Shown here piece after piece: positions 50,101-61,532 of a stretch of DNA of 64,000 nt. The notes under the pieces were generated by a model. The model ran no database searches. It was not told the origin of the DNA and saw only the letters and a list, made by a program, of their open reading frames with translations. The DNA lies in the NCBI RefSeq assembly GCF_013402875.1, contig NZ_CP058579.1:1922001-1986000 (forward strand), read 5' to 3'. The DNA is from Halorarum salinum (GTDB lineage: Archaea; Halobacteriota; Halobacteria; Halobacteriales; Haloferacaceae). Both the position numbers and the translations under genes were made by a program. Within the stretch, counting starts at the first letter, position 1; the number at the start of each line of letters is the position of its first letter.

Positions 50101-50505
50101 AAGAATATCGACTATTACTTTGAACCCGGAGTGTTCCTCTCTATCGGCGGATTCGCTAATCTTAAAGCCAGATATACGAATAACCGAGCTATCGACCATA
50201 CTGGTAATATATTCGCCCCAACTATCCTACAAAAGCTGTCCGTGAAGTACCTCATCGGAATCCTCAATTCAGAAGTACCCATCCATATCACCGAGAACTT
50301 CATTAATTCAACTGGACTTGAGACCGCCGACCTCCGTTTGATTCCCATTCCGATTCCGACCGAGGAACAACGGGAAAGTGTCGAGATGCTGGTCGATAGA
50401 GCGATTGAATCTCAGCGAGGGAATCGGTCGGAGTCTCTTGAATCGATTCAGGTAGAGGTTGAAGAGATCGTAGAGCAGATCTATCAGGTGGACTTGGATG
50501 AGTGA
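47161..50505 (+). CDS. Eco57I-like/N6-adenine methyltransferase, type II-like restriction-modification
   Basis: 1114 residues from the ATG at 47161 (MSVRTPIEGLASIENGGDVI). N-terminal portion resembles helical regions of large restriction enzymes (YYIEEQF-type, NRVLFLLFIEEKGWL). Then FYTPKPITAYMTKNAL, motif I VLDPAVGSGAFIIAMLEEL (about residue 428), DTLYGVDIDAGGIELCKFRVWL, and the catalytic motif FDIVIGNPPYEGQ (NPPY, about residue 630) of adenine-N6 methylases. The C-terminus (KYLIGILNSEVPIHITENF) is a target-recognition-like region. It methylates host DNA. The next gene overlaps by 8 bases and should be the cleaving partner. Confidence 0.85.
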   Translation: MSVRTPIEGLASIENGGDVIDYLLNSEGLNYSTFVEVPSGIKRNQGRNDWYEAHLVDENGDGIIRYIELEASGDSPTFSDLKRHLKRHGSPVNELFTVIAYRKSDEGPLTSPLNDDLTFLYIEEQFSSEDVEVTFDLNYFTVKRFGVEPAYLDYLDDLSVDSGQGRTSLEGDVEDVFSIREVTRNFYQDFGEIFREDLQDAIHGLKEPEENLNAYTRTVVNRVLFLLFIEEKGWLDGDVDYVENKYEEVAKEDDLHVYDDLFEPLFFEALSEEGTTESDRLGQIPFLNGGLFERKDIEEDVEIDEEFFDKLLSPEDGDDGEPEGFLRRYKISLRESNPSEQELVVDPEFIGRIFEMFMQEDERSEVGAFYTPKPITAYMTKNALKQHLLGQTDISHEEAVSLVSDHTAPDSLTEDQIEDVNNALRSATVLDPAVGSGAFIIAMLEELVAVSEALDDSTGDGRSRFQLKEEFIADTLYGVDIDAGGIELCKFRVWLHLMQDLDVDHDEFLDSNEEFALPNLGFKFFVGNSLVGEHDPTNVDAQQATLTGGLDSTLEEIHEVRTQYQTAHGDEKDRLAERLEELTDELDTQLAVEKSSWMTEVVEETDETFAWTLNIPEVILDGGFDIVIGNPPYEGQSQQDYIGELARFYDKKYDFYKTIPRMRHDLYQKFNIRGWELTRKGGVLSYITSNTFYTIGSKQTTRQLLQRNQLLDLLRANSDTFEATVEPAIFALQKRDPDPAHKFNYIDASETEIQEYRSFVRELDTSESDAERVAPLDLHDSSRGYRVQLQVYKDTLRSAFFEPTETNMRLHDQFMSRIKSLAEEWESELQDVTTLKHNAEKITQNHTSQLDTGDVSILGLLTLGGQGMTTDKNAKYMAFLEGTEEAEELADRNPDFKLNERNENEYKYLDKVITKDRVADPSNLTSEEQLNGIDSSKTATWVPIEKGFRQSDLYYKPQVEYINWSKDSLQEIQSHRNGILKNIDYYFEPGVFLSIGGFANLKARYTNNRAIDHTGNIFAPTILQKLSVKYLIGILNSEVPIHITENFINSTGLETADLRLIPIPIPTEEQRESVEMLVDRAIESQRGNRSESLESIQVEVEEIVEQIYQVDLDE

Positions 50506-53500
50506 CCCAGACTGGAGCGACTACTCCGACGTCCTCGACAACCGCGAATATGACGTCGCCGAGCGAGCGAACGCTCTTGCGCCTGAAGCCGAGACTGTCC
50601 GCATCGCCGTCGGTTACTTCTATCTTGGTGGTTTCGACCTCCTGAAGGAGAATCTCCGAAGGGCCGAACGCATTGAGATCCTCATCGGAACCGATACCGA
50701 TCAGCGTACCATCGATGAACTGGAACGTGGGTTCGCTGACGACCTAGATGAATACGACCGCTCTGAAGCCCAAGAGGGGATCAATCGGCTTTACGAGCTC
50801 ATTCAGGAGGACAAGGTGGATGTGCGTGTGTACGACGACAGTCGGTTCCATCCGAAGCTCTATCTCTTCGAACATCCGGCGGGTTCCCCGGACCTCGGCC
50901 GGGCGATTATCGGCTCCTCGAACCTCTCCGCCAGCGGTCTCCGTGGGAACGTCGAACTGAACGTCGAAAAGAAGGACAACAACACGATCCGGTATCTCGG
51001 CGAGTGGTTCGAGGATATCTGGGCGGAGGCCAGCGAATTCGATAAGGACCTTATGTCTGCCGAGATAGAGAAGTCGCAGTTCGGAGACGACCTCCCAGAC
51101 ACCTCCACGGGAAAAGGTGAAACATCGGTCGCCGAGGTGGAAACGATTTCACCGTACGAAGCGACGAAACGGTTTATTGTCGAGCAGTTTTCCCGAGACG
51201 TCCGAGAGGGCACCCTACTTCAGGACATCTCTGGCGATTACGAAGAACAACTCACAGCGTTCCAGCAGGACGCGTTCAGGGCAGCTCGTCGTCCGCTCGA
51301 AAAATACAACGGCGTCGTACTAGCGGACAGCGTCGGTCTGGGCAAGTCATACATCGGTGCCCCTCTCGTACAGGACTACACGAGTTCCCGAGATGATGTT
51401 CTCGTCATCGCTCCCAAACGGTTGGAGCGGATGTGGATGCGGGACCTCCTTGATGCGGACACCGGCGAGTTCCCGACAACTGCTGAGAAGACGTTTATGA
51501 GTTTCAATAAACTCTCCCGTCTATCTGAAAAGGAGATCCAACGGCTCCGTGGAGTTGATCTGATTCTCGTCGACGAGGCTCACAACCTCCGAAATACTGG
51601 AACACAGCGCTACGATAAACTCCAGTCAATCGGTCGGATGGGCAAGAAGTTCGTGATGCTGACTGCAACGCCGATCCACAACTCCGTCAGAGACGTGGAC
51701 AATTTGATCAAGGTGTTTGCCGACGACGATGACTTCGACATCGAGCTTCAGGGCTTGTCACCGAGCGAGATTTTTAAACAGTATGACCGCCTCTCCAGCG
51801 AGGAAGACAAATCCGCGAGCACTCAGAGTCGGCTTTCGGACTTGGAAGAACTCATTGAGTCAATTATGCGGGAGGTCATCATTTCGAGGGACCGGAAGTA
51901 CATCCTCGAAAATTACGAGGAGATCACCATCGGAGACCGGGCCATTAGCGTCCCTGATCGAAAGCCGCGTCTTGTCACACCCGATGACCCTCGTCTCGAC
52001 GAACTCTATAGTGACATCGTCGATACAGTCATCGGCTCAGATGACTCCGAGAACTCTGGATTGAACATCCCCTACGTTAGTGCTGATCGGTATGACGCTG
52101 ACGGAGACGAAGAAGAGGAACTAATCATTGAGTACCAGAACGCGAGCATTCTGATGCTCATTAATCTCCTCAAACGTCTTGAGAGCAGCCTTGCCGCGTT
52201 CGAGAGTTCTGTTGAACGGCTTATGGAACGAGAGCGCATCACACGTCACATCGCTACTGGTGACCTGGATGATGCGCAAAACCGGAGTGACGCCGTCGAA
52301 CAGATACGAGATACATTCGAGGACGATTTCGCCAAAGATGTTGACTTCGAGGACGTCGCAGAAGCCCTCAATAGAGTCAGTCCATCGAAGAGGGATGAAA
52401 TCGTAGCAGACATTGATGAAGACCTTCGAGAACTGGATCGAATAAAACGGCAAGCACAGAATGCACTTCAGACCAAAGAAGATGGACGCACTAAAGACGC
52501 TAAGGCGGAACGTCTGCGTGGGTTAATTGACCGAGAGCTATCGGACGAGAAGGTTCTCATATTCAGCCAGTACGTACCCACGATTACGCACCTCTTTGAG
52601 CAACTAACTGGGGAGAATCCTGCACACACGAACGTTGCTACACTTGGTCAAGATCCGAGTAATCCTACCGTCGGATTTGTCCACGGGGGAAGTGGGTACG
52701 ATGAGAGAATTGTTGAGCGATTTGCTCCAGAAGCTCAAGAGGCCGATGTGACCCTCGGCGAAGAGATTGACATCCTGTTTGCGACCGACGTATTAGGAGT
52801 CGGACAGAATCTCCAAGATGCACGAGTCCTCGTGAACTACGATCTCCACTGGAACCCGATGAAGATGGAGCAGAGAATTGGGCGTCTTGACCGCATCACC
52901 ACGCGGCATGATGAACTGTGGATCTACAACTTTGCTCCGACAGGTGACCTACGGAAGCAGCTCGGGCTCGTCGAGGGGATTCAAGAGAAAATCGAAGATA
53001 TCGCCAACACGTTCGGTCATGCCGCTCCCATCCTGGATACTGCTGAAGAGCAAGTACACAAAACGCTCATCACCTACGAGCGACTGGAAGAAGGCGGTGC
53101 AGAGTTTGGGGACGAACGGTTGGAGGGTATTGGGTCGAAGTACGACGATCTCAGAAATGTCGTTCGATCGTTCTGTGAGGAGAATGATGTCGATATCGAG
53201 GAGCTTCTGGAAACCTACGATGCCGTCGCAGACAGGTCGGAACCACAGTATTTCGTCTCTCCTGGCGAAGAAGGATACGTCTCACTCGCCCACTTAGAAC
53301 ATAGTAGTGGACGCACTGAATGGCGGACCACCATCTTCGATTCGGATCGAGTACAAAGCACCACAATCGGAGGGCAAACGGTCTTCACCCAATTCCCACG
53401 GTTAGAGACTGATGAAGTTCGAGTGTTCGAAACCATCTCCTCCCCCGATACCACTCGCCACGCGATTCCTGAGGACGATTTTGATGAGTTGAAGTCTTTC

Positions 53501-53860
53501 GTGAGTGAGTTGGGCACGCCGAGTACGTGGCAAAACGACATTCTTAGTCGGCAGAGTGGAGATAGTGACGTTGTTACCGACATTAAACAACTATGTCGAC
53601 AGATTGCGGACAGCGACGTGGATGTGAGCGGAGAAGCAGAAAAGATTGTTGGCCTGCTGGGTGATCACGAGATGAGCGACTGGGCAGAGGGCCAGTTGCG
53701 CACAATACATCGGAGACGTCGTAGATATGGGGCTAACGGTACGATTCGAAGGATACACCACAAACTCACAGAGGGGATTGAGTTAGTCGATCCGGAGACC
53801 GTTATGGAAGCAGAAGTTGCGATTGCAGGGCAATTGGACGATAGCACACCGGAGAAATAA
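50498..53860 (+). CDS. PLD nuclease-SNF2 helicase, restriction partner
   Basis: 1120 residues. The N-terminal phospholipase-D-like domain has the HxK motif RFHPKLYLFEHP (about residue 116) and IIGSSNLSASGLRGNVELNV. Then an SNF2-type helicase: Walker A LADSVGLGKSYIG (about 276), LILVDEAHNLRN (DEAH, about 358), MLTATPIHNSVRD, and motifs V-VI LFATDVLGVGQNLQDARVLV and MKMEQRIGRLDR (about 760-790). It starts 8 bases inside the methyltransferase, so both form one restriction-modification cassette. DISARM has related parts (PLD, SNF2-type DrmD, methylase), but here PLD and helicase are fused and no DrmA/DrmB follows. Confidence 0.82.
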   Translation: MSDPDWSDYSDVLDNREYDVAERANALAPEAETVRIAVGYFYLGGFDLLKENLRRAERIEILIGTDTDQRTIDELERGFADDLDEYDRSEAQEGINRLYELIQEDKVDVRVYDDSRFHPKLYLFEHPAGSPDLGRAIIGSSNLSASGLRGNVELNVEKKDNNTIRYLGEWFEDIWAEASEFDKDLMSAEIEKSQFGDDLPDTSTGKGETSVAEVETISPYEATKRFIVEQFSRDVREGTLLQDISGDYEEQLTAFQQDAFRAARRPLEKYNGVVLADSVGLGKSYIGAPLVQDYTSSRDDVLVIAPKRLERMWMRDLLDADTGEFPTTAEKTFMSFNKLSRLSEKEIQRLRGVDLILVDEAHNLRNTGTQRYDKLQSIGRMGKKFVMLTATPIHNSVRDVDNLIKVFADDDDFDIELQGLSPSEIFKQYDRLSSEEDKSASTQSRLSDLEELIESIMREVIISRDRKYILENYEEITIGDRAISVPDRKPRLVTPDDPRLDELYSDIVDTVIGSDDSENSGLNIPYVSADRYDADGDEEEELIIEYQNASILMLINLLKRLESSLAAFESSVERLMERERITRHIATGDLDDAQNRSDAVEQIRDTFEDDFAKDVDFEDVAEALNRVSPSKRDEIVADIDEDLRELDRIKRQAQNALQTKEDGRTKDAKAERLRGLIDRELSDEKVLIFSQYVPTITHLFEQLTGENPAHTNVATLGQDPSNPTVGFVHGGSGYDERIVERFAPEAQEADVTLGEEIDILFATDVLGVGQNLQDARVLVNYDLHWNPMKMEQRIGRLDRITTRHDELWIYNFAPTGDLRKQLGLVEGIQEKIEDIANTFGHAAPILDTAEEQVHKTLITYERLEEGGAEFGDERLEGIGSKYDDLRNVVRSFCEENDVDIEELLETYDAVADRSEPQYFVSPGEEGYVSLAHLEHSSGRTEWRTTIFDSDRVQSTTIGGQTVFTQFPRLETDEVRVFETISSPDTTRHAIPEDDFDELKSFVSELGTPSTWQNDILSRQSGDSDVVTDIKQLCRQIADSDVDVSGEAEKIVGLLGDHEMSDWAEGQLRTIHRRRRRYGANGTIRRIHHKLTEGIELVDPETVMEAEVAIAGQLDDSTPEK

Positions 53861-54106: not shown

Positions 54107-54205
54107 CCGAGGGTGATTTCCGCCGTTCCAGCCGCACTCCCCGACAATCCCAGATGGGCCATGCTCCGAGACTCATCCGGTTCGCTCAACACCACCCCAT
54201 CAGCA

Positions 54206-55219
54206 ATGAGTCTCGAACCCATCACCCCAGACCACGCGCTCGACCTCTACCTCACCGACAAAGCCAACGAGCTTGCGGAGGCCTCCCTCCGCGGCCACCA
54301 GTACCGGCTCGGCCACTTCGTCCGCTGGTGCAACGACATCGCAGCCATCGACAACCTCAACACGATGACCGGCCGCAAGCTGCACGAATACCGGCTCTGG
54401 CGCCGTGAAGACGGTGACCTGAACAAAGTCAGCGAGAAAACCCAGATGGACACCCTCCGCGTGTTCATCCGGTGGCTAGAATCCATCGATGGCGTCGAAC
54501 AGGACCTGAGCGAAAAAGTGCTGTCCCCGTCGGTCACCCCCGACGAGAACACCCGGCACGAGATGATCGACAGCGACCGCGCCACACAGGTCCTCGCCCA
54601 CCTCGAAAAGTACGAGTACGCAAATCTCCCGCACATCGCCATCGCCCTGATGTGGCACACGATGATGCGGATCGGTGGCGTCCACGCCCTCGACGTCGAC
54701 GACTACCACCCAGACGACCAGTACCTCGAAGTCCGGCACCGGCCAGACACTGGAACCCCCATCAAGAACAAGGGAGACGGCGAACGCCTGGTAGCGGTCT
54801 CCGACCAAGTGGCCGAACTGCTTGATGACTGGCTCACCCAGAAACGGCCCGATGTCACCGACGAGTACGACCGGACCCCCTTACTGGCCACCCGGCAAGG
54901 CCGCGCCAACAAGACCACGCTCCGTGCCTACGTGTACCGCTGGACCCGGCCCTGTGTCACCGACAATCCCTGCCCCCATGACCGCAACCCAGACGACTGC
55001 GACGGGATGCACCGCGATTTCGCCTACCGCTGCCCCTCCAGCGTGAGTCCCCACGCCATCCGCCGCGGCTCCATCACGCACAACCTCAACAGCGACGTGC
55101 CAGCTCAAGCGGTCAGCGACCGGGCGAACGTCAGCCAGCGCGTGATCGACCAGCACTACGACCGGCGCACCGAACGCGACAAGATGGAACAACGACGGGC
55201 GTACCTGGACAACCTCTGA
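54206..55219 (+). CDS. Tyrosine recombinase 5 with Cys/His insertion
   Basis: 337 residues from 54206 (MSLEPITPDHALDLYLTDKA); a GTG at 54113 would add 31. Core-binding domain (SLRGHQYRLGHFVRWC), catalytic Arg in TMMRIGGVHALDVDDY, Lys in TPIKNKGDGERLV, HxxR in SPHAIRRGSITHNL, Tyr in VIDQHYDRRTERD. The Cys/His cluster is CVTDNPCPHDRNPDDC then RCPSS. It is closest to recombinases 1 and 3 in sequence and end (KMEQRRAYLDNL), pointing to recent duplication. Its promoter has a TATA box (54022-54031) and the leader peptide. It is convergent with recombinase 6. Confidence 0.87.
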   Translation: MSLEPITPDHALDLYLTDKANELAEASLRGHQYRLGHFVRWCNDIAAIDNLNTMTGRKLHEYRLWRREDGDLNKVSEKTQMDTLRVFIRWLESIDGVEQDLSEKVLSPSVTPDENTRHEMIDSDRATQVLAHLEKYEYANLPHIAIALMWHTMMRIGGVHALDVDDYHPDDQYLEVRHRPDTGTPIKNKGDGERLVAVSDQVAELLDDWLTQKRPDVTDEYDRTPLLATRQGRANKTTLRAYVYRWTRPCVTDNPCPHDRNPDDCDGMHRDFAYRCPSSVSPHAIRRGSITHNLNSDVPAQAVSDRANVSQRVIDQHYDRRTERDKMEQRRAYLDNL

Positions 55220-55251
55220 GGCTGCCCCGCTAGCTGTCACACCGCGGTGCG

Positions 55252-56427
55252 TCACTGGGCGTACCCGGACTCCGGGTCGTCCCCAACCGCCCGGAACTCG
55301 TCCTCGAACCGCTCCCGCTCCTCGGTCGAATCCGGTAAGTCGTAATGGAGGGCCTGCACCCGCGGGGACACATCACACCGCTGTTGAATCGCATCCGAGG
55401 ACACCCCCCGGTTCCGCTGATCCGTGATATACCCGGTGCGGACATGGTGCGGTGCCCGACTGCTCGGACACCGGAACGCCGCATCATTCGCCTGCGCCGC
55501 CTCACACTCGTCCGGATCCCGGTCATGCGGACACTCGAGCCCAACCACACACGGACGCGTCCACATATACGCAATCTTCTGTAGCATCGACGGGCTGATC
55601 CGGCCATCACCCTTCGTCAACAATGGCTCCCGCCCCAGCGCATCACGCACTGGCGGCCGCACATGCGCCAGATGATCCCGGATAATCCCCGGTGTCTGGC
55701 CGTAGAGGGTGATCTCGCGCTCGCTTTGCTCGTTATTCTTCAGCGGCGTTCCCTCCCGGTGCCGGAACGTGAGGACACCGGTCTGCCGGTTGAAATCACC
55801 CACATCAAGCGCCCGAAGCCCGCTTTTCCGCGGCCCGGCCTGGCACATCAACTCCATGGTCACGTGCTCCACAGTCGCGTAACGGAACGTCCGCAGGTAG
55901 GCTAACGCCGCCTGCGCTACCTCGGGCACCAGCTGCTTCTCGTCGACTCCCTCCCCTCGGTCACGGTCCACCCGTGGAATCTCCACGCAGTGTTCGAACC
56001 GGACTGGCGCCATCCGGTGCTCGATCAGGTACCGGATAAACTCCCGGAAGAGGTACATATCATCGCGCAACGTGTTGTTCGCCAACGGTTTGGCCCGGGA
56101 CAACGACTCATACTTCCGCCAGGACCGGTACCGTTCCACGTCCTCACTGGTGAGGTCCTGCGTCGTTGTGATCCCTGCCGTCTGCAGATACGTCTCGAGG
56201 TAGTCGAGCTTCCGGGTGTAGTGGCTGGTCGTTTCCACGGCCTCCAGTTTGTGCTCACGAAACTCTGCGAGGACCTCGGTCATCGGCCGGGACTTCAGGA
56301 CGAACTCGGGGAAGGACTCAGCGATCTCGTCTACGACCGTGGAGGCGATCTGCTCCAGAAACTCCTCTGACGGGTTCTCTGAGAGGCGTTGTTTGACAAG
56401 CTCAACATCGTCAGGGCGGTCAGCCAT
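55252..56427 (-). CDS. Tyrosine recombinase 6 with Cys/His insertion
   Basis: 391 residues, the longest and most diverged copy. It has a long N-terminal extension (EQIASTVVDEIAESFPEFVL), core-binding domain (SHYTRKLDYLETYLQTAGI), catalytic Arg in GPRKSGLRALDVGDF, Lys in TPLKNNEQSEREI, HxxR in APHHVRTGYITDQ and Tyr in QALHYDLPDST. The Cys/His cluster is CVVGLECPHDRDPDEC plus RCPSS. Its 3' end lies 32 bases from that of recombinase 5, tail to tail. A 71-residue gene ends 18 bases upstream and is probably cotranscribed. Confidence 0.85.
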   Translation of the reverse strand: MADRPDDVELVKQRLSENPSEEFLEQIASTVVDEIAESFPEFVLKSRPMTEVLAEFREHKLEAVETTSHYTRKLDYLETYLQTAGITTTQDLTSEDVERYRSWRKYESLSRAKPLANNTLRDDMYLFREFIRYLIEHRMAPVRFEHCVEIPRVDRDRGEGVDEKQLVPEVAQAALAYLRTFRYATVEHVTMELMCQAGPRKSGLRALDVGDFNRQTGVLTFRHREGTPLKNNEQSEREITLYGQTPGIIRDHLAHVRPPVRDALGREPLLTKGDGRISPSMLQKIAYMWTRPCVVGLECPHDRDPDECEAAQANDAAFRCPSSRAPHHVRTGYITDQRNRGVSSDAIQQRCDVSPRVQALHYDLPDSTEERERFEDEFRAVGDDPESGYAQ

Positions 56428-56445: not shown

Positions 56446-56661
56446 TTACCACCAGTCCTCCTCATCGAGGTAGAGAGGGGTGGTGAAGTCAGTGGTAGCG
56501 TAGGGCTGGTCCTCCTCCCAGTACTGCATCCGCTGGTCCATCGCATCGTCAAGCTGAGCGGCCTTATTCTCCGCAAGCTCGTGGCTGAGCCCTGGGGCGG
56601 TTGCTGGTTCGAACGGTCGGTCGAACTGGTCCAACGCAGTGTTGGCTTCGTTACTGGTCAT
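56446..56661 (-). CDS. Hypothetical protein ahead of recombinase 6 (71 aa)
   Basis: 71 residues from the ATG at 56661 (MTSNEANTALDQFDRPFEPA). Acidic and aromatic with a helix AENKAAQLDDAMDQRMQYW and an acidic tail (LYLDEEDWW). No family is recognised. It ends 18 bases before the recombinase 6 start on the same strand, a position like that of the RHH gene before recombinase 4, so it may be a recombinase regulator or directionality factor. Confidence 0.45.
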   Translation of the reverse strand: MTSNEANTALDQFDRPFEPATAPGLSHELAENKAAQLDDAMDQRMQYWEEDQPYATTDFTTPLYLDEEDWW

Positions 56662-56805
56662 GGCGACGGCTGAGGCTACGCCTTGGCCGATATTAAAACG
56701 TTTCTCTGCTTCACACCCGAACGTGACGATGCTGGTATCGAGTACAACACGGCTTGCCGAGGCCACGCAGTGGCATCCTCTCGCCGCGGCATGTCATCAC
56801 CTCCC

Positions 56806-57189
56806 TTATTCGCCGCGGTCCTGCTTCACTTCTTCAAGCATTTTCTCCATCTCCTCGATCGACAGACTGGACTCGTGGGCAAGCCCGCGGAACCGCTCCC
56901 GTTCGAACTCTTCAAACTCATCATCCAGATCGGTCAACATCTGGACCACGACCTCGCCCTTCGCCGTCAACTCGTACGTCCCGTCCTCCTCCCGCACCAA
57001 TTCAGCGTCCTTGAAATCGTTGATGAAGTGCTGGACCCCGGAGCGGCTGGCATCGATGTTCTTGTGGATATCCTTCGCGGGCACGCCTTTCGTGATCTGC
57101 TCTAGCGCGGCCAACCGCTTCCAGTTCCCGAGGGCGTTCAGCACCTCTTCGATCATCTGGCGGCGTTCCAGGTCAAGTTCAACGGCCAT
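56806..57189 (-). CDS. Winged-helix transcriptional regulator (127 aa)
   Basis: 127 residues from the ATG at 57189 (MAVELDLERRQMIEEVLNAL). Winged helix: GNWKRLAALEQITKGVPAKD, IHKNIDASRSGVQHFINDFK (recognition helix), then wing DGTYELTAKGEVVVQ and a C-terminal dimer helix (DDEFEEFERERFRGLAHES). The type is ArsR/PadR-like haloarchaeal HTH. It is divergent from the E1/E2-like operon, about 155 bases apart, so it likely controls that operon. Confidence 0.65.
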   Translation of the reverse strand: MAVELDLERRQMIEEVLNALGNWKRLAALEQITKGVPAKDIHKNIDASRSGVQHFINDFKDAELVREEDGTYELTAKGEVVVQMLTDLDDEFEEFERERFRGLAHESSLSIEEMEKMLEEVKQDRGE

Positions 57190-57344: not shown

Positions 57345-57563
57345 ATGGGCAAACAACCCCGCACCAACGAACCCGGCGAACAGGACGAAGCGAACAAGAC
57401 AATCGCGGAGTACAAGCGCGAGCACGGTATCCCGCCCGAGAAACCGATGGTGTACACGCTCGGGACCGACACCTACGAACTCCACGACCAGGACCTGGTC
57501 GGGGACGTCCCGGACGGTGCAACCATCGAATCGCTCTCGGTCAACGACCCTGTGTTCGGGTAG
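57345..57563 (+). CDS. Small C-terminal-Gly protein, possible ubiquitin-like modifier (72 aa)
   Basis: 72 residues. A polar, charged N-terminal tail (MGKQPRTNEPGEQDEANKTI) is followed by a compact-looking KPMVYTLGTDTYELHDQDLV and an end ESLSVNDPVFG with C-terminal Gly. First gene of an operon with E2- and E1-like genes, so it is the natural candidate for the modifier or substrate. It is not a clear beta-grasp by eye and carries one Gly rather than GG, so this is inference from position. TTTATA at 57308-57313 lies about 32 bases upstream, giving a leaderless start. Confidence 0.5.
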   Translation: MGKQPRTNEPGEQDEANKTIAEYKREHGIPPEKPMVYTLGTDTYELHDQDLVGDVPDGATIESLSVNDPVFG

Positions 57564-57679
57564 GTAGGGCCGCTCCCGTCCCTCTCCCTGCTGACGCAAC
57601 CGCCCGACTCCCCTCCAACCTTGCTTTGGAAGCCCATCCCCCCGATACCCGAAGAGGACCACCACACACCCCCCATACC

Positions 57680-58072
57680 ATGATCGACAAAGACCGCGTC
57701 AAAATCGAATTGAACGCCCTGAAACCCGTCTGTGATGAGGTCCGCTCGGATCTCAACGAAGGCTGGGTCGAACTCCACGGCATCACCTTCCCATCCGGAT
57801 GGCGGCCCCGCACCGGTGCCCTCCGGTTTGAACTTCAAGACCCCTATCCGGGCAGTCAGCCGAAAGCCTTCATCCCCGAAAATATGCGGTACAAAGGAGG
57901 CCGTCCGCACATCATGCTTCGGAGCGGGCCGCCCGGCTGGCGGAAGTACTGCATCCACCGCCTCGAGCTGGACGCCGGGTTCGATACGCTTGTGTCGATG
58001 ACCCGGTTAATCGAGAAATCGCTGCTGCGCCCGCACAGCAAGAACCCGGTCAAGAAGGCCTCTCGACGATGA
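57680..58072 (+). CDS. Prokaryotic E2-like ubiquitin-conjugating-fold protein
   Basis: 130 residues from the ATG at 57680 (MIDKDRVKIELNALKPVCDE). E2/UBC-like order: helix 1, strands WVELHGITFPSGWRPRTGALRFELQDPYPGSQPKAFIPENMRY (the xPxxxP flap region), then RPHIMLRSGPPGWRKYCIHR with a Cys in the catalytic position (YC), and a C-terminal helix (DTLVSMTRLIEKSLLRPH). Family: prokaryotic E2 (Prok-E2 types). Such proteins accept a modifier from an E1 and pass it to a target. The next gene, E1-like, overlaps by 4 bases. Confidence 0.65.
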   Translation: MIDKDRVKIELNALKPVCDEVRSDLNEGWVELHGITFPSGWRPRTGALRFELQDPYPGSQPKAFIPENMRYKGGRPHIMLRSGPPGWRKYCIHRLELDAGFDTLVSMTRLIEKSLLRPHSKNPVKKASRR

Positions 58073-59001
58073 CCGGGGCCGGCTCCACCCACACGCCGGA
58101 CGCGCGGTTTGACCGGACGATCCGCGCCCTCGGCCAATCCGGCGTGAACCGGCTTGCCACCACGCACCTCGCGGTCGTTGGCTGCGGCGGTCTGGGCTCC
58201 ATCATGGCCGAGGAATTCACCCGGTACGGTATCGGCCAGCTCACACTCATCGATCCTGATGTGGTGGAGGAATCGAACCTGCCGCGGCTGTTCGGAGCGT
58301 TTCCTGCGGATGTCGGCCGCCCCAAAGTCGAGGTGGTTCGCGACCACCTCGCCCGTATCGATGAGAACGTCCGGGCGACCACGGTACAGGATCGGGTTGA
58401 GAACGCTACTCCAGCACTCCGGGAGGTTGACCTGATCGTCGCTGGCCTTGACCGCGTGTCCACACGCCAGTGGCTGAACGCGTACGCGGTCCAGCACCGC
58501 ACCCCGTACGTCGATGCCGGGGTTATCATCACTACCAGCGGCACCGAGGAGACCGAGACAGGAACAGCACCGCACATCGAGACGATGGACGGCTACATCC
58601 AGGTGGTACTGCCCGGCCACTCCGCCTGCTTCGCGTGTCTGAACCGCGGAGATCCGGAACGCGCCCGGATCGAACGCCTCACCGAGGAGGAACGCGAGGA
58701 GGAACTCGCCCGCGGCTACATCGACGAAACACAGCTGTCCCCGGAACCTGCGGTCGTCCCGTTGAACGGGGTTGTTGCCTCGAAAACGGTGCAGCTCGTG
58801 GCCAAGCTCGTGACCGGGTACGCCGAGCCACCGGACTACCTGCATTTCGAAGGCGTCAGCAACGACCTCACCACGCTGTCCACCACGCCACGGCCGGACT
58901 GTCCGCTCTGCAACCCCGGCACTGACCAGGACCTCGATCTCGAGGCGGACTTCGATCTCACCCCCGCCGAGAACGACCCAGACCCGGAGACAGACCAATG
59001 A
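58069..59001 (+). CDS. E1/ThiF/MoeB-like adenylyltransferase
   Basis: 310 residues. ATP-binding fold HLAVVGCGGLGSIMAEEFTRYGIG (about residue 33), metal and nucleotide contacts IDPDVVEESNLPRLFGAF, KVEVVRDHLARI and DLIVAGLDRVSTRQWLNAYA, VDAGVI. Two CxxC pairs (ACFACLNR and CPLCNPG) should bind structural zinc as in ThiF/MoeB. It activates the C-terminal Gly of a modifier by adenylation. It overlaps the E2-like gene by 4 bases and the next gene by 4, giving a tightly coupled set. C-terminal acidic tail (DLDLEADFDLTPAE). Confidence 0.82.
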   Translation: MTGAGSTHTPDARFDRTIRALGQSGVNRLATTHLAVVGCGGLGSIMAEEFTRYGIGQLTLIDPDVVEESNLPRLFGAFPADVGRPKVEVVRDHLARIDENVRATTVQDRVENATPALREVDLIVAGLDRVSTRQWLNAYAVQHRTPYVDAGVIITTSGTEETETGTAPHIETMDGYIQVVLPGHSACFACLNRGDPERARIERLTEEEREEELARGYIDETQLSPEPAVVPLNGVVASKTVQLVAKLVTGYAEPPDYLHFEGVSNDLTTLSTTPRPDCPLCNPGTDQDLDLEADFDLTPAENDPDPETDQ

Positions 59002-59333
59002 ATCCATACCTCGACCACGTACTCTCGGCCATCGCCGGTGGCATCAGCAGCGTCATCATCGTAACATTGGTCCGGGATATCCCCGGCGGCACAGAGGCAG
59101 CAACCGTCGGAGGCATCCTGCTGTTCACCGCCGCGGTCATTGACTGGCTGCGCGAGCTCAGCCCAGACCACCCCTCCAGAATGCCCCGGCAACCGGTCGA
59201 AACCGATCCCAACGCCCTCGATCTCGACACGACCGGGTTGTTCACCGACCACCAGAACACCGCTGTCCCTGACAGGGGCCGCCGCCCCCACCCGTGGACA
59301 ATCCAGGCCCAGCGCCACGAGGACAACAGATGA
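58998..59333 (+). CDS. Small membrane protein in the E1-E2 operon (111 aa)
   Basis: 111 residues. Two hydrophobic segments near the N-terminus (LSAIAGGISSVIIVTLV and ATVGGILLFTAAVIDWL), then a polar Pro/Arg-rich cytoplasmic tail. It overlaps the E1-like gene by 4 bases and the next gene by 4. It could anchor the conjugation complex at the membrane. No family is recognised. Confidence 0.5.
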   Translation: MNPYLDHVLSAIAGGISSVIIVTLVRDIPGGTEAATVGGILLFTAAVIDWLRELSPDHPSRMPRQPVETDPNALDLDTTGLFTDHQNTAVPDRGRRPHPWTIQAQRHEDNR

Positions 59334-59587
59334 ACTTCGAGACAGCTGACCTCCATGACTGCGGACACGTCGGCCAACTCGCCGGCGTCTGCCAATACGC
59401 CGCGCCCAACGAGCAGGGGTGTGCGAACAAGATCTGCGAGCAGTGCATCGGCACCTGCGATATCTGCCGGGCAGTCCTCTGCCCGCATCACGCCGTCCGG
59501 CTCGAGGACGGGACACAGGTGTACTGCTCGGACCATGTGAACGGGTACATCGCCCGCACACTCCTCAGCGCCCTGCTCGACCGCTAA
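59330..59587 (+). CDS. Cys/His-rich zinc protein (85 aa)
   Basis: 85 residues from the ATG at 59330 (MNFETADLHDCGHVGQLAGV). Many metal ligands: CGH, CQYAAPNEQGCANKICEQC, CDICRAVLCPHHAVRL, and YCSDH. The spacing CxxC...CxxC with His resembles B-box or RING-like cross-brace zinc fingers. In an operon with E1 and E2, a RING-like E3 ligase role is conceivable but not shown. It overlaps the preceding gene by 4 bases and precedes another zinc protein by 15. Confidence 0.55.
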   Translation: MNFETADLHDCGHVGQLAGVCQYAAPNEQGCANKICEQCIGTCDICRAVLCPHHAVRLEDGTQVYCSDHVNGYIARTLLSALLDR

Positions 59588-59602
59588 CCCACCCCCCTGT
59601 AT

Positions 59603-60235
59603 ATGGACGATACTGACACCAACGCCGATCCCACCACAATGACCGACAACACCACTGATGCCGACCCGGTGACCGACAACACCTACCAGAAGAAAACGAC
59701 ACGCCGCATCGGCGACCCCGACGCGTTCGTCGTCGATGACGCGACAACAACCACAGACGTTGGGACGATGAACCAGCACACCGATGTCGTCATCCGTCCC
59801 TGCAAATGCGGGAACACCGAACAGGAGCTCAGCACCATCTCCCAGTGCAGCCGCTGCACCGAGAAATGCTGTCCCAAGTGCCGTATCACACTCTCACGGC
59901 GGATTCGCTGCCCGGACTGTGCCGAACAGGAGTTCCACCTCACGAAAGCCGTGTTCATCGCGCTGTACCGCCTGGACGTACACGAACACGGCGGCACCGA
60001 CCTACTGGAACAGGTCGAGCACACGGCTGCCGTCACCCTGATCGAACACAACTACATCCAGATCGAGGCCGCTGTCGAGGAGGACGGCACGCTCGCGGTC
60101 GACGCGGACAACCCGCTCTCCGTGGCGGGGAAGGAAGCACTCCACGTCGGCGAACAACTGTACAACGACGACGAAGACGTTGCTCGGCTCAAGCAGGAGT
60201 TGATCATCCAACAGGTGGCGAACAATGGCCGCTAA
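59603..60235 (+). CDS. Zinc-finger protein with helical C-terminus (210 aa)
   Basis: 210 residues (59639 is another start). After a disordered Asp/Thr-rich N-terminus, a zinc cluster: RPCKCGNTEQELSTISQCSR, CTEKCCPKCRI and IRCPDCAEQEF, at least two four-Cys sites, followed by helices (AVFIALYRLDVHEHGG, HTAAVTLIEHNYIQIEAAV) to the end. It resembles the preceding small zinc protein. It is in the E1-E2 operon, 15 bases after the upstream gene and overlapping the next by 11. Confidence 0.55.
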   Translation: MDDTDTNADPTTMTDNTTDADPVTDNTYQKKTTRRIGDPDAFVVDDATTTTDVGTMNQHTDVVIRPCKCGNTEQELSTISQCSRCTEKCCPKCRITLSRRIRCPDCAEQEFHLTKAVFIALYRLDVHEHGGTDLLEQVEHTAAVTLIEHNYIQIEAAVEEDGTLAVDADNPLSVAGKEALHVGEQLYNDDEDVARLKQELIIQQVANNGR

Positions 60236-60596
60236 CACCCTCCCCGCCGTGGTGGGGACACCGCTGTTCCTGCCGCTGCCTACAACCCCGAACGAACTCG
60301 TGTTCCTCGCTGCGGTGTTCGCCGGGGCGATGGCCATCCTGTTCGGCATCCACCCCACCGCCGTCCTCGGTGCGGCCTACCTCGTGCTGGTCATGTATTT
60401 CGTTGACGTGCTCGGGCCGCACCCGATGCTCGCGGTCCTGATCATCGCGACCGCTGCACTCGCCCGCCTCGCCGGAGTTGGCGGTGACAAACTCCGGACC
60501 TGGCTGCACAACGCCGGCCCGGAAACCCTGGCCGCTGTGGCCGGTGTCCTCCAGCACCTCATTTCCACTCGTCGTGGCGGGCGTGAAAACGAGTAG
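60225..60596 (+). CDS. Small hydrophobic membrane protein (123 aa)
   Basis: 123 residues. Two to three hydrophobic segments (ELVFLAAVFAGAMAILFGI, AVLGAAYLVLVMYFVDVLG, MLAVLIIATAALARLAGV), then a helical C-terminus (HNAGPETLAAVAGVLQHL). It overlaps the preceding zinc protein by 11 bases. The second membrane protein in the operon. Function unknown. Confidence 0.5.
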   Translation: MAANTLPAVVGTPLFLPLPTTPNELVFLAAVFAGAMAILFGIHPTAVLGAAYLVLVMYFVDVLGPHPMLAVLIIATAALARLAGVGGDKLRTWLHNAGPETLAAVAGVLQHLISTRRGGRENE

Positions 60597-60632: not shown

Positions 60633-61532
60633 ATGACCCCTCCCATGTATTCGATCACGCCCAAGACCGTTCCTGCCACGTTGAAAGCCCAGCACCAGTG
60701 GGTGTGCTGGCGCGAAGAATCCCGGGACGGACAGGACAAACCCGCGAAGGTACCGATCAATCCGGGGACCGGCACGTATGCGAGCGTGGCCGACCCGGAG
60801 ACGTGGACCACCTTCGCTGCCGCCTACACCACGTACCGGGAAGACGACACGGTGGCCGGTGTCGGGTTCGTGTTCACCCCGGACGACCCGTACGTCGGCG
60901 CTGACCTGGATGACTGCCGTGACCCGGCCACCGGGAAACTCGCGGACTGGACGCGAGATATCGTTCAGCGCCTCGACTCGTATACGGAGGCGTCACCGTC
61001 AGGGACCGGTGTCCACGTACTCGTCCGCGGGGAATTCCCTGACGGGAAGTGCCGGAACGGCGACGTTGAACTGTACGACCGGGACCGGTACTTCACCGTG
61101 ACCGGGCGGCACCTGTCCTTGACACCGCCGACGGTGAACGACCGCACTGAACCACTGAGCGAACTCCACGAAGAGTACCTCGCTGCTGATACCGGGAGCG
61201 GTGAGCGCGAGCTGGCTGATGGCGGTGCCCCCGAGGATGCACCACTGGCGGATGCAGACCTGCTCGAGTACGCGTTGAACGCATCAAACGGGGAGAAGTT
61301 CGACCGGTTGTGGCGCGGTGATACCGCTGGGTACGCGAGCCATAGCGAGGCGGACCAGGCCCTGTGTAACCTGTTGGCGTTCTGGACGGGTGGTGATGCA
61401 CACCAGATCGAGCGGCTATTCAGCAAAAGCGGTCTCATCAGGGACAAATGGCGTGACCGGCCGAACTACCGGAAACGAACCATCGAGACGGCGATCAGCG
61501 ATTGTCCTGCCTTTTACGACCCGGAGCACTAG
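60633..61532 (+). CDS. Primase-polymerase-like (NrS-1 type) replication protein
   Basis: 299 residues. Motifs of prim-pol family: FVFTPDDPYVGADLDDCRD (Asp-x-Asp metal ligands), SGTGVHVLVRGEFP, GDVELYDRDRYFTVTGRHL, then a helical C-terminal domain (ADADLLEYALNAS, SEADQALCNLLAFWTGGD, NYRKRTIETAIS) as in phage NrS-1-like and haloviral proteins. No helicase domain follows. It should synthesise primers for plasmid or virus replication. It follows the membrane gene by 36 bases, so may share the operon. Confidence 0.7.
   Translation: MTPPMYSITPKTVPATLKAQHQWVCWREESRDGQDKPAKVPINPGTGTYASVADPETWTTFAAAYTTYREDDTVAGVGFVFTPDDPYVGADLDDCRDPATGKLADWTRDIVQRLDSYTEASPSGTGVHVLVRGEFPDGKCRNGDVELYDRDRYFTVTGRHLSLTPPTVNDRTEPLSELHEEYLAADTGSGERELADGGAPEDAPLADADLLEYALNASNGEKFDRLWRGDTAGYASHSEADQALCNLLAFWTGGDAHQIERLFSKSGLIRDKWRDRPNYRKRTIETAISDCPAFYDPEH

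What the first reader, a model, noticed from the sequence alone, without database searches (positions are those of the whole stretch)
57345..60596. Haloarchaeal E1-E2-small-protein operon with zinc and membrane partners
Seven genes are coupled (4- to 11-base overlaps between most): a Gly-terminated small protein, an E2-like protein with a Cys, an E1-like adenylyltransferase with two CxxC, two small membrane proteins and two zinc proteins, one RING/B-box-like. A divergent HTH gene probably regulates them. This resembles bacterial ubiquitin-like conjugation operons used in defence (Bil type) but is linked to a primase-like gene, so it may come from a plasmid or virus. No JAB protease is seen.
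Basis: partly seen in the sequence, partly recalled or inferred. Interest (0 to 1): 0.85.

Follow-up and report, generated by a model that had tools for sequence, protein, structure and literature searches.

The report
Haloarchaeal ubiquitin-like conjugation operon (Bub type)
A plasmid-derived stretch of a salt-loving archaeon's chromosome carries a ubiquitin-like tag, an activating enzyme and a transfer enzyme that are relatives of the bacterial "Bub" tagging pathway, but here the transfer enzyme has a cysteine where every bacterial relative examined has a serine.

Summary
In detail: Ubl (72 aa), E2-like, E1 and four further genes lie at 57345-60596, with 4-11 bp overlaps at four of six junctions. 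The chemistry is right, but the filing (Bil) is not. Profiles of 14 haloarchaeal relatives point to the bacterial Bub family. The E1 family matches Citrobacter BubCD over JAB and E1 (E=6e-42). The modelled window E2 matches BubB best (Foldseek E=4e-4, probability 1.0), and Pfam puts its relatives in Prok-E2_E. Two departures stand out. First, the E2 active-site residue is Cys in 14/14 haloarchaeal members and Ser in 10/10 bacterial relatives and in a second haloarchaeal type. Second, every relative's E1 is fused to a JAMM protease; the window E1 alone lacks it, and its Ubl ends exactly at the family's ...FG terminus. The two zinc proteins plus the primase-like gene are an independent plasmid cassette, found without the Ubl genes next door in five genomes, so they are not core parts and only weak E3 candidates. 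Relatives lie on haloarchaeal plasmids or integrated elements; none was found in virus collections. The window Ubl has an unusual N-terminus, so partial decay of this copy is not excluded. Verdict: new variant of a known kind.

The parts
56809..57189 (-). divergent winged-helix regulator (probable), 127 aa
   Evidence: HVO_A0261_N E=8e-12; related HTH genes beside the Ubl cassette in L025, L028, L031, L074, L075
57306..57312 (+). TATA-like box (tttatac) about 33-39 bp before the Ubl start codon; probable promoter
   Evidence: read from sequence; inference, not tested
57345..57563 (+). ubiquitin-like protein, 72 aa, ends ...VNDPVFG
   Evidence: profile of relatives finds it at E=3.8e-5; family ends in (V/Y/P)FG plus 0-31 residues; L057 homologue E=4e-7
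57680..58072 (+). E2 (UBC fold), 130 aa, active-site Cys91
   Evidence: Pfam Prok-E2_E in relatives
58069..59001 (+). E1 (ThiF), 310 aa, adenylation residues intact, four zinc-type Cys, no JAB domain
58998..59333 (+). small membrane protein, one transmembrane segment
   Evidence: hydropathy; a membrane-protein gene directly follows E1 in L025, L031, L057, L074, L075
59330..59587 (+). zinc protein 1 (B-box/RING-like Cys/His pattern), 85 aa; plasmid cassette gene
   Evidence: 48% identical to L028 copy; also L087-L091 and, cut short, L057
59603..60235 (+). zinc protein 2 (eight Cys in CxC/CxxC pairs, then a winged-helix-like C-terminus by eye), 210 aa; plasmid cassette gene
60225..60596 (+). membrane protein, about three transmembrane segments
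   Evidence: hydropathy; weak match in L028 (E=0.0025)
60633..61532 (+). primase-like plasmid gene (NrS-1 type), last gene of the zinc cassette

Best explanation
The first three genes encode a Ubl-conjugation cascade of the Bub family. E1 adenylates Gly72 of the Ubl. Because no Cys other than the four zinc-type ones is conserved in the E1, the Ubl probably passes directly from the adenylate to Cys91 of the E2, as a thioester, and from there to an amine on a target. The membrane protein that overlaps E1 probably brings this to the membrane. The Ubl is born with the mature ...FG end, and the JAB protease that is fused to E1 in all relatives is gone, so this copy can conjugate without processing and cannot reverse it by itself. 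The cassette sits on an integrated plasmid, upstream of a plasmid zinc1-zinc2-primase cassette with which it may be co-transcribed. Shown here: homology, folds (E2), residues, gene order, JAB absence, plasmid linkage. Inferred: thioester chemistry, membrane site, irreversibility, regulation. Role most likely: conflict between mobile elements or viruses and host (defence or element maintenance), by analogy only.
For: Homology of all three genes with the window left out of the profiles. JAB-E1 profile against BubCD E=6e-42 over both domains, including the GYI...P-x-V-x-x-L-N region. E2 model: top Foldseek hit BubB, E=3.8e-4, probability 1.00, TM 0.69. E2 relatives score Prok-E2_E at or near the Pfam cut-off. 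Bacterial plasmid relatives have the same order Ubl-E2-JAB/E1, several Ubls also ending in FG. Adenylation residues (two Arg, GxGGxG, D62, N70, R73, K86, D128) invariant in 14/14. JAMM motif in 13/13 relatives, absent in the window. Cys in 14/14 haloarchaeal type-1 E2s. E1 tree: the 14 form one group, one change of the Cys/Ser label, window next to the JAB-bearing Natrinema copy, 95/90.
Against: The window Ubl's first 18 residues (MGKQPRTNEPGEQDEANK) lack the hydrophobic residues that form strands 1-2 in the relatives, and its AlphaFold model is weak (pLDDT 74, pTM 0.54). No target, no conjugate and no expression are known. Bub pathways themselves have not been shown to stop phage (PMC13373217).
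Confidence: 0.7

Rival explanations
1. The window copy is decaying or has changed job: JAB is lost and the Ubl no longer folds as a full beta-grasp, so no conjugation takes place; the intact systems are the relatives.
For: Only member without JAB; aberrant Ubl N-terminus against 11 others; weak Ubl model; the same genome holds a Cys-less E2 relative in an operon without E1 or Ubl about 20 kb away.
Against: All seven ORFs are open, tightly coupled, with third-position GC of about 0.8 in the genes listed; E1 adenylation residues, E2 Cys and the Ubl FG end are all kept; the JAB deletion leaves the E2-E1 4-bp overlap intact.
Confidence: 0.2
2. One integrated seven-gene system in which the zinc proteins are RING/B-box-type E3s for the Ubl.
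For: Overlapping genes here; same order in L028; zinc1 remnant behind the cassette in L057; five of the seven genomes with zinc protein 2 also carry an E2 relative, against about 12 of 391 overall (P about 2e-7 to 2e-6).
Against: Zinc1-zinc2-primase stands alone in L087-L091; two genomes (G132, G363) have it with no E2 found; most Ubl cassettes lack zinc genes; the association can come from sharing one plasmid type.
Confidence: 0.15
3. A sulfur-carrier or cofactor system (ThiS/MoaD-like) with no protein conjugation.
For: ThiF-type E1; TtuB and ThiS are among the Foldseek hits of the Ubl.
Against: A UBC-fold E2 with an invariant Cys; no sulfur-transfer or cofactor gene in the operon; terminus is FG, not GG; specific kinship with BubCD/BubB.
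Confidence: 0.05

Closest known systems
Bub (bacterial ubiquitination-like) pathway, Citrobacter BubB/BubCD (PDB 9ea4, 9ea5, 9eae) and bacterial operons multiubiquitin-E2/UBC-ThiF-DUF6527
   Same: Ubl-E2-(JAB)E1 order, sequence match over JAB and E1, E2 fold match, Ubl ending in FG in several bacterial members
   Different: E2 has Cys instead of Ser; no DUF6527 or phosphotransferase gene seen next to the haloarchaeal cassettes inspected; single Ubl; membrane-protein genes; JAB missing in the window copy
Pfam Prok-E2_E (PF14462) / operon type 6d of Iyer et al. 2006 (PMC1779556)
   Same: E2 family; a relative passes the Pfam cut-off (L059, 25.2 vs 25 bits); Ubl + JAB + E1 + E2 composition
   Different: window E2 itself gives no Pfam hit; the His two residues after the Cys is not conserved in all (CIE, CVR variants)
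Bil (BilABCD) defence operon
   Same: Ubl, E2, E1 and JAB types of protein
   Different: no PADLOC E2 or Ubl match; the sequence and fold evidence points to Bub instead
SAMP/UbaA system of haloarchaea
   Same: Ubl activated by a ThiF-type E1 in haloarchaea
   Different: the 2010 survey of archaeal Ubls reports no archaeal E2 (PMC2948915); here a UBC-fold E2 sits in the operon

Membership tests
Bub | E1 of the BubCD type (JAB fused N-terminally to E1) | tested here: inconclusive
   family profile vs BubCD E=6e-42 over both domains; 13/13 relatives have JAB-E1; the window copy keeps the E1 half only
Bub | E2 of the BubB fold | tested here: met
   top Foldseek hit 9eae_C, E=3.8e-4, probability 1.0
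Bub | Ser at the E2 active-site position (as in Citrobacter BubB and 10 bacterial relatives) | tested here: not met
   Cys91 in the window and Cys in 14/14 type-1 haloarchaeal E2s; three bacterial rows (L092-L094) were shifted two columns by eye
Bub | DUF6527 partner gene, as in bacterial relatives | tested here: not met
   no such gene in the window operon; present in L092-L095, L097, L099, L101
Bub | oxyester Ubl~E2 intermediate (recalled, paper not readable here) | not testable with these tools
   papers PMC12885553 and PMC12145246 not held
Bil | match to known Bil E2/Ubl families | tested here: not met
   PADLOC gave no hit for Ubl or E2; E1 hits are generic ThiF (E1-E2 models)
Prok-E2_E | Pfam gathering score | tested here: inconclusive
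   window none; L059 25.2 bits, L057 24.0, L024 15.0 vs cut-off 25
RING/B-box E3 (zinc proteins) | known RING or B-box profile match | tested here: not met
   no Pfam family above cut-off for either zinc protein
SAMP-activating E1 UbaA | NCBIfam UbaA equivalog score | tested here: not met
   72 bits against cut-off 450

The most novel reading that the evidence does not exclude
A haloarchaeal branch of the Bub family works through a Cys thioester while the bacterial branches use Ser, and the window copy is a protease-less, pre-matured, membrane-located version that makes conjugates it cannot remove, with plasmid RING-like proteins recruited as E3s.
Probability: 0.15. Interest if true: 0.8.

Novelty: new variant of a known kind. 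Interest (0 to 1): 0.55.

Why it matters
A 2010 survey found no E2 in archaea (PMC2948915), and the known haloarchaeal SAMP pathway was described without one. Here haloarchaeal plasmids carry complete E1-E2-Ubl cassettes. The family contains both Ser and Cys at one E2 position, so it is a natural comparison for how an ester-forming and a thioester-forming E2 differ. The window copy, without JAB and with a ready-made FG end, is a natural test of what the fused protease is for: processing, or removal of conjugates.

Tried and rejected
Bil filing: no PADLOC support, Bub evidence stronger. Viral origin: E2 and E1 profiles gave nothing in viral contigs, E2 nothing in phages, zinc protein 2 nothing in viral contigs. 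Frameshift as the cause of the odd Ubl N-terminus: the other frames show no beta-hairpin-like sequence, and an in-frame stop lies just upstream of the start codon (by eye). A stand-alone JAB replacing the lost one: none in the window; the genome has three Prok-JAB proteins elsewhere, which do not match this JAB family. Own-genome ThiF sequences as tree outgroups: one was picked in the wrong frame or strand and both are long branches, so the root, and hence whether Cys or Ser came first, is unresolved. E2 alignment as a search query in the search for related loci failed; the E1 C-terminal alignment was used instead. The Bub papers could not be read.

Full report
What is there. Ubl 57345-57563, E2 57680-58072 and E1 58069-59001 are followed by a membrane protein, two zinc proteins and a second membrane protein up to 60596. 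Four of six junctions overlap by 4 or 11 bp; the Ubl-E2 gap is 116 bp and the zinc-zinc gap 15 bp. A primase-like gene follows 36 bp on. The E1 is a ThiF protein (E=1e-49); the Ubl, E2, zinc and membrane proteins have no hit above cut-off in Pfam or NCBIfam and no significant hit in PADLOC or PHROGs.

Relatives. Searches of haloarchaeal genomes found E2 relatives in a few percent of them (14/391 in the class sample including weak hits, 6/170 in the family, 11/392 in the order). With loci from genome contigs and plasmids this gives 14 distinct loci with Ubl-E2-E1 in that order (L040's second Ubl gene carries a frameshift), plus a near-copy in Natribaculum longum. Named hosts are Halobellus captivus, Haloglomus halophilum, Halolamina pelagica, a Natronococcus, a Halorientalis MAG, Haloferax marisrubri, a Natrinema, Natribaculum and Salinigranum marinum. 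Many copies are on plasmids. With the window removed from the profiles, they recover the window's Ubl, E2 and E1 at E=3.8e-5, 7e-30 and 7e-111 among 1,498 six-frame segments, with no other significant hit.

Kinship. The E1 family profile matches Citrobacter BubCD over both JAB and E1, E=6e-42, far ahead of the next structure. The AlphaFold model of the window E2 (pLDDT 87.6) has BubB as its only hit under 0.001 (E=3.8e-4, probability 1.00, TM 0.69); eukaryotic E2s follow. Relatives reach or approach the Pfam Prok-E2_E cut-off. tblastn with a haloarchaeal JAB-E1 finds bacterial plasmid operons annotated multiubiquitin protein, E2/UBC, ThiF, then (in part of them) phosphotransferase and DUF6527; several of their Ubls end in FG, as do the haloarchaeal ones. 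The system therefore belongs with Bub, not Bil.

The cysteine. At the E2 active-site position all 14 haloarchaeal type-1 E2s have Cys (context [YWH]C[IVA]); Citrobacter BubB and the ten bacterial E2s examined have Ser (RWSRH, or WFSWH after a two-column shift by eye), and so does a second haloarchaeal type (Ubl-E2 fused, LSWH/LSYH; L096, L106, L076). On the E1 tree the Cys group needs one change; which state is older is not resolved. That Bub works through oxyester intermediates is recalled from its paper, which could not be opened here.

The missing protease. Every type-1 and type-2 haloarchaeal relative has a JAMM motif (HSHP...S..D) in an N-terminal domain fused to E1. The window E1 starts right after where that domain would end, its overlap with the E2 gene unchanged, and no JAB remnant is in the window. 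Relatives' Ubls carry 0-31 residues after FG; the window Ubl ends at FG. Some JAB-bearing relatives also end at FG, so the two facts are compatible but do not prove a link.

E1 chemistry. Adenylation residues are invariant in 14/14. The only invariant Cys are the four of the two CxxC, so there is no candidate for a conserved E1 thioester Cys; direct transfer from adenylate to E2 is the likely route (inference).

Membrane theme. A membrane-protein gene directly follows E1 in the window and in L025, L031, L057, L074 and L075; the E1s of L059 and L026 end in a transmembrane segment themselves. This repeats often enough to suggest a membrane site of action.

Zinc cassette. Zinc1-zinc2-primase is conserved as a block in L028 and in L087-L091, where no Ubl/E2/E1 gene is adjacent in the latter five. 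Five of seven genomes with zinc protein 2 also have an E2 relative (P about 2e-7 to 2e-6), which shared plasmids can explain. The primase is found on over 100, mostly haloarchaeal, plasmids. The zinc proteins are therefore plasmid genes that may or may not serve the Ubl system.

Setting. Two tyrosine recombinases lie just upstream (54113-56427), and an MCM and HerA-like ATPases lie downstream (L036); the region is an integrated plasmid-like element in a 4.0-Mb contig. No tRNA lies in the window.

Doubts. The window Ubl N-terminus lacks the hydrophobic pattern of strands 1-2, and its model is weak (pLDDT 74), although nearly all its structural neighbours are beta-grasp proteins (best E=0.14). 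A decaying copy remains possible (0.2).

Noticed in passing
L036:16354-17380 (same genome, about 20 kb downstream of the finding): A Cys-less E2-like gene with two small membrane-protein genes and a divergent HTH, beside a HerA-like ATPase, without E1 or Ubl.
   Followed up: partly
L023, L026/L042, L024/L043, L040: Doubled architecture Ubl1 - Cys-less E2 (UEV-like) - Ubl2 - Cys E2 - JAB-E1 in four genomes; L040's second Ubl is frameshifted.
   Followed up: partly
L029:6947-9410 and L030:7494-8125: Ubl ending in VFR plus Cys-less E2 with no E1, next to a gene that looks transglutaminase-like by eye and an Hsp70-like gene ('GIDLGTTRSG').
   Followed up: no
L096, L106, L076: Second haloarchaeal Bub-like type: Ubl fused to or before a Ser-type E2, JAB-E1, and (L096, L106) a KTSC-domain protein.
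   Followed up: partly
L059:1296-6549: Salinigranum plasmid: 7-deazaguanine genes (QueC, QueE, FolE, transglycosylase; DNA-modification-like) beside the Ubl cassette.
   Followed up: no
window 50498-53860: PLD-nuclease plus SNF2-type helicase, 1120 aa, next to the recombinases; a possible defence gene.
   Followed up: partly
window 56446-56766 (minus), L028:8680-8820, L087, L089, L091: Tiny acidic proteins near the zinc cassette with a shared look (QDPY.TT..., ending WW in the window and L028).
   Followed up: no
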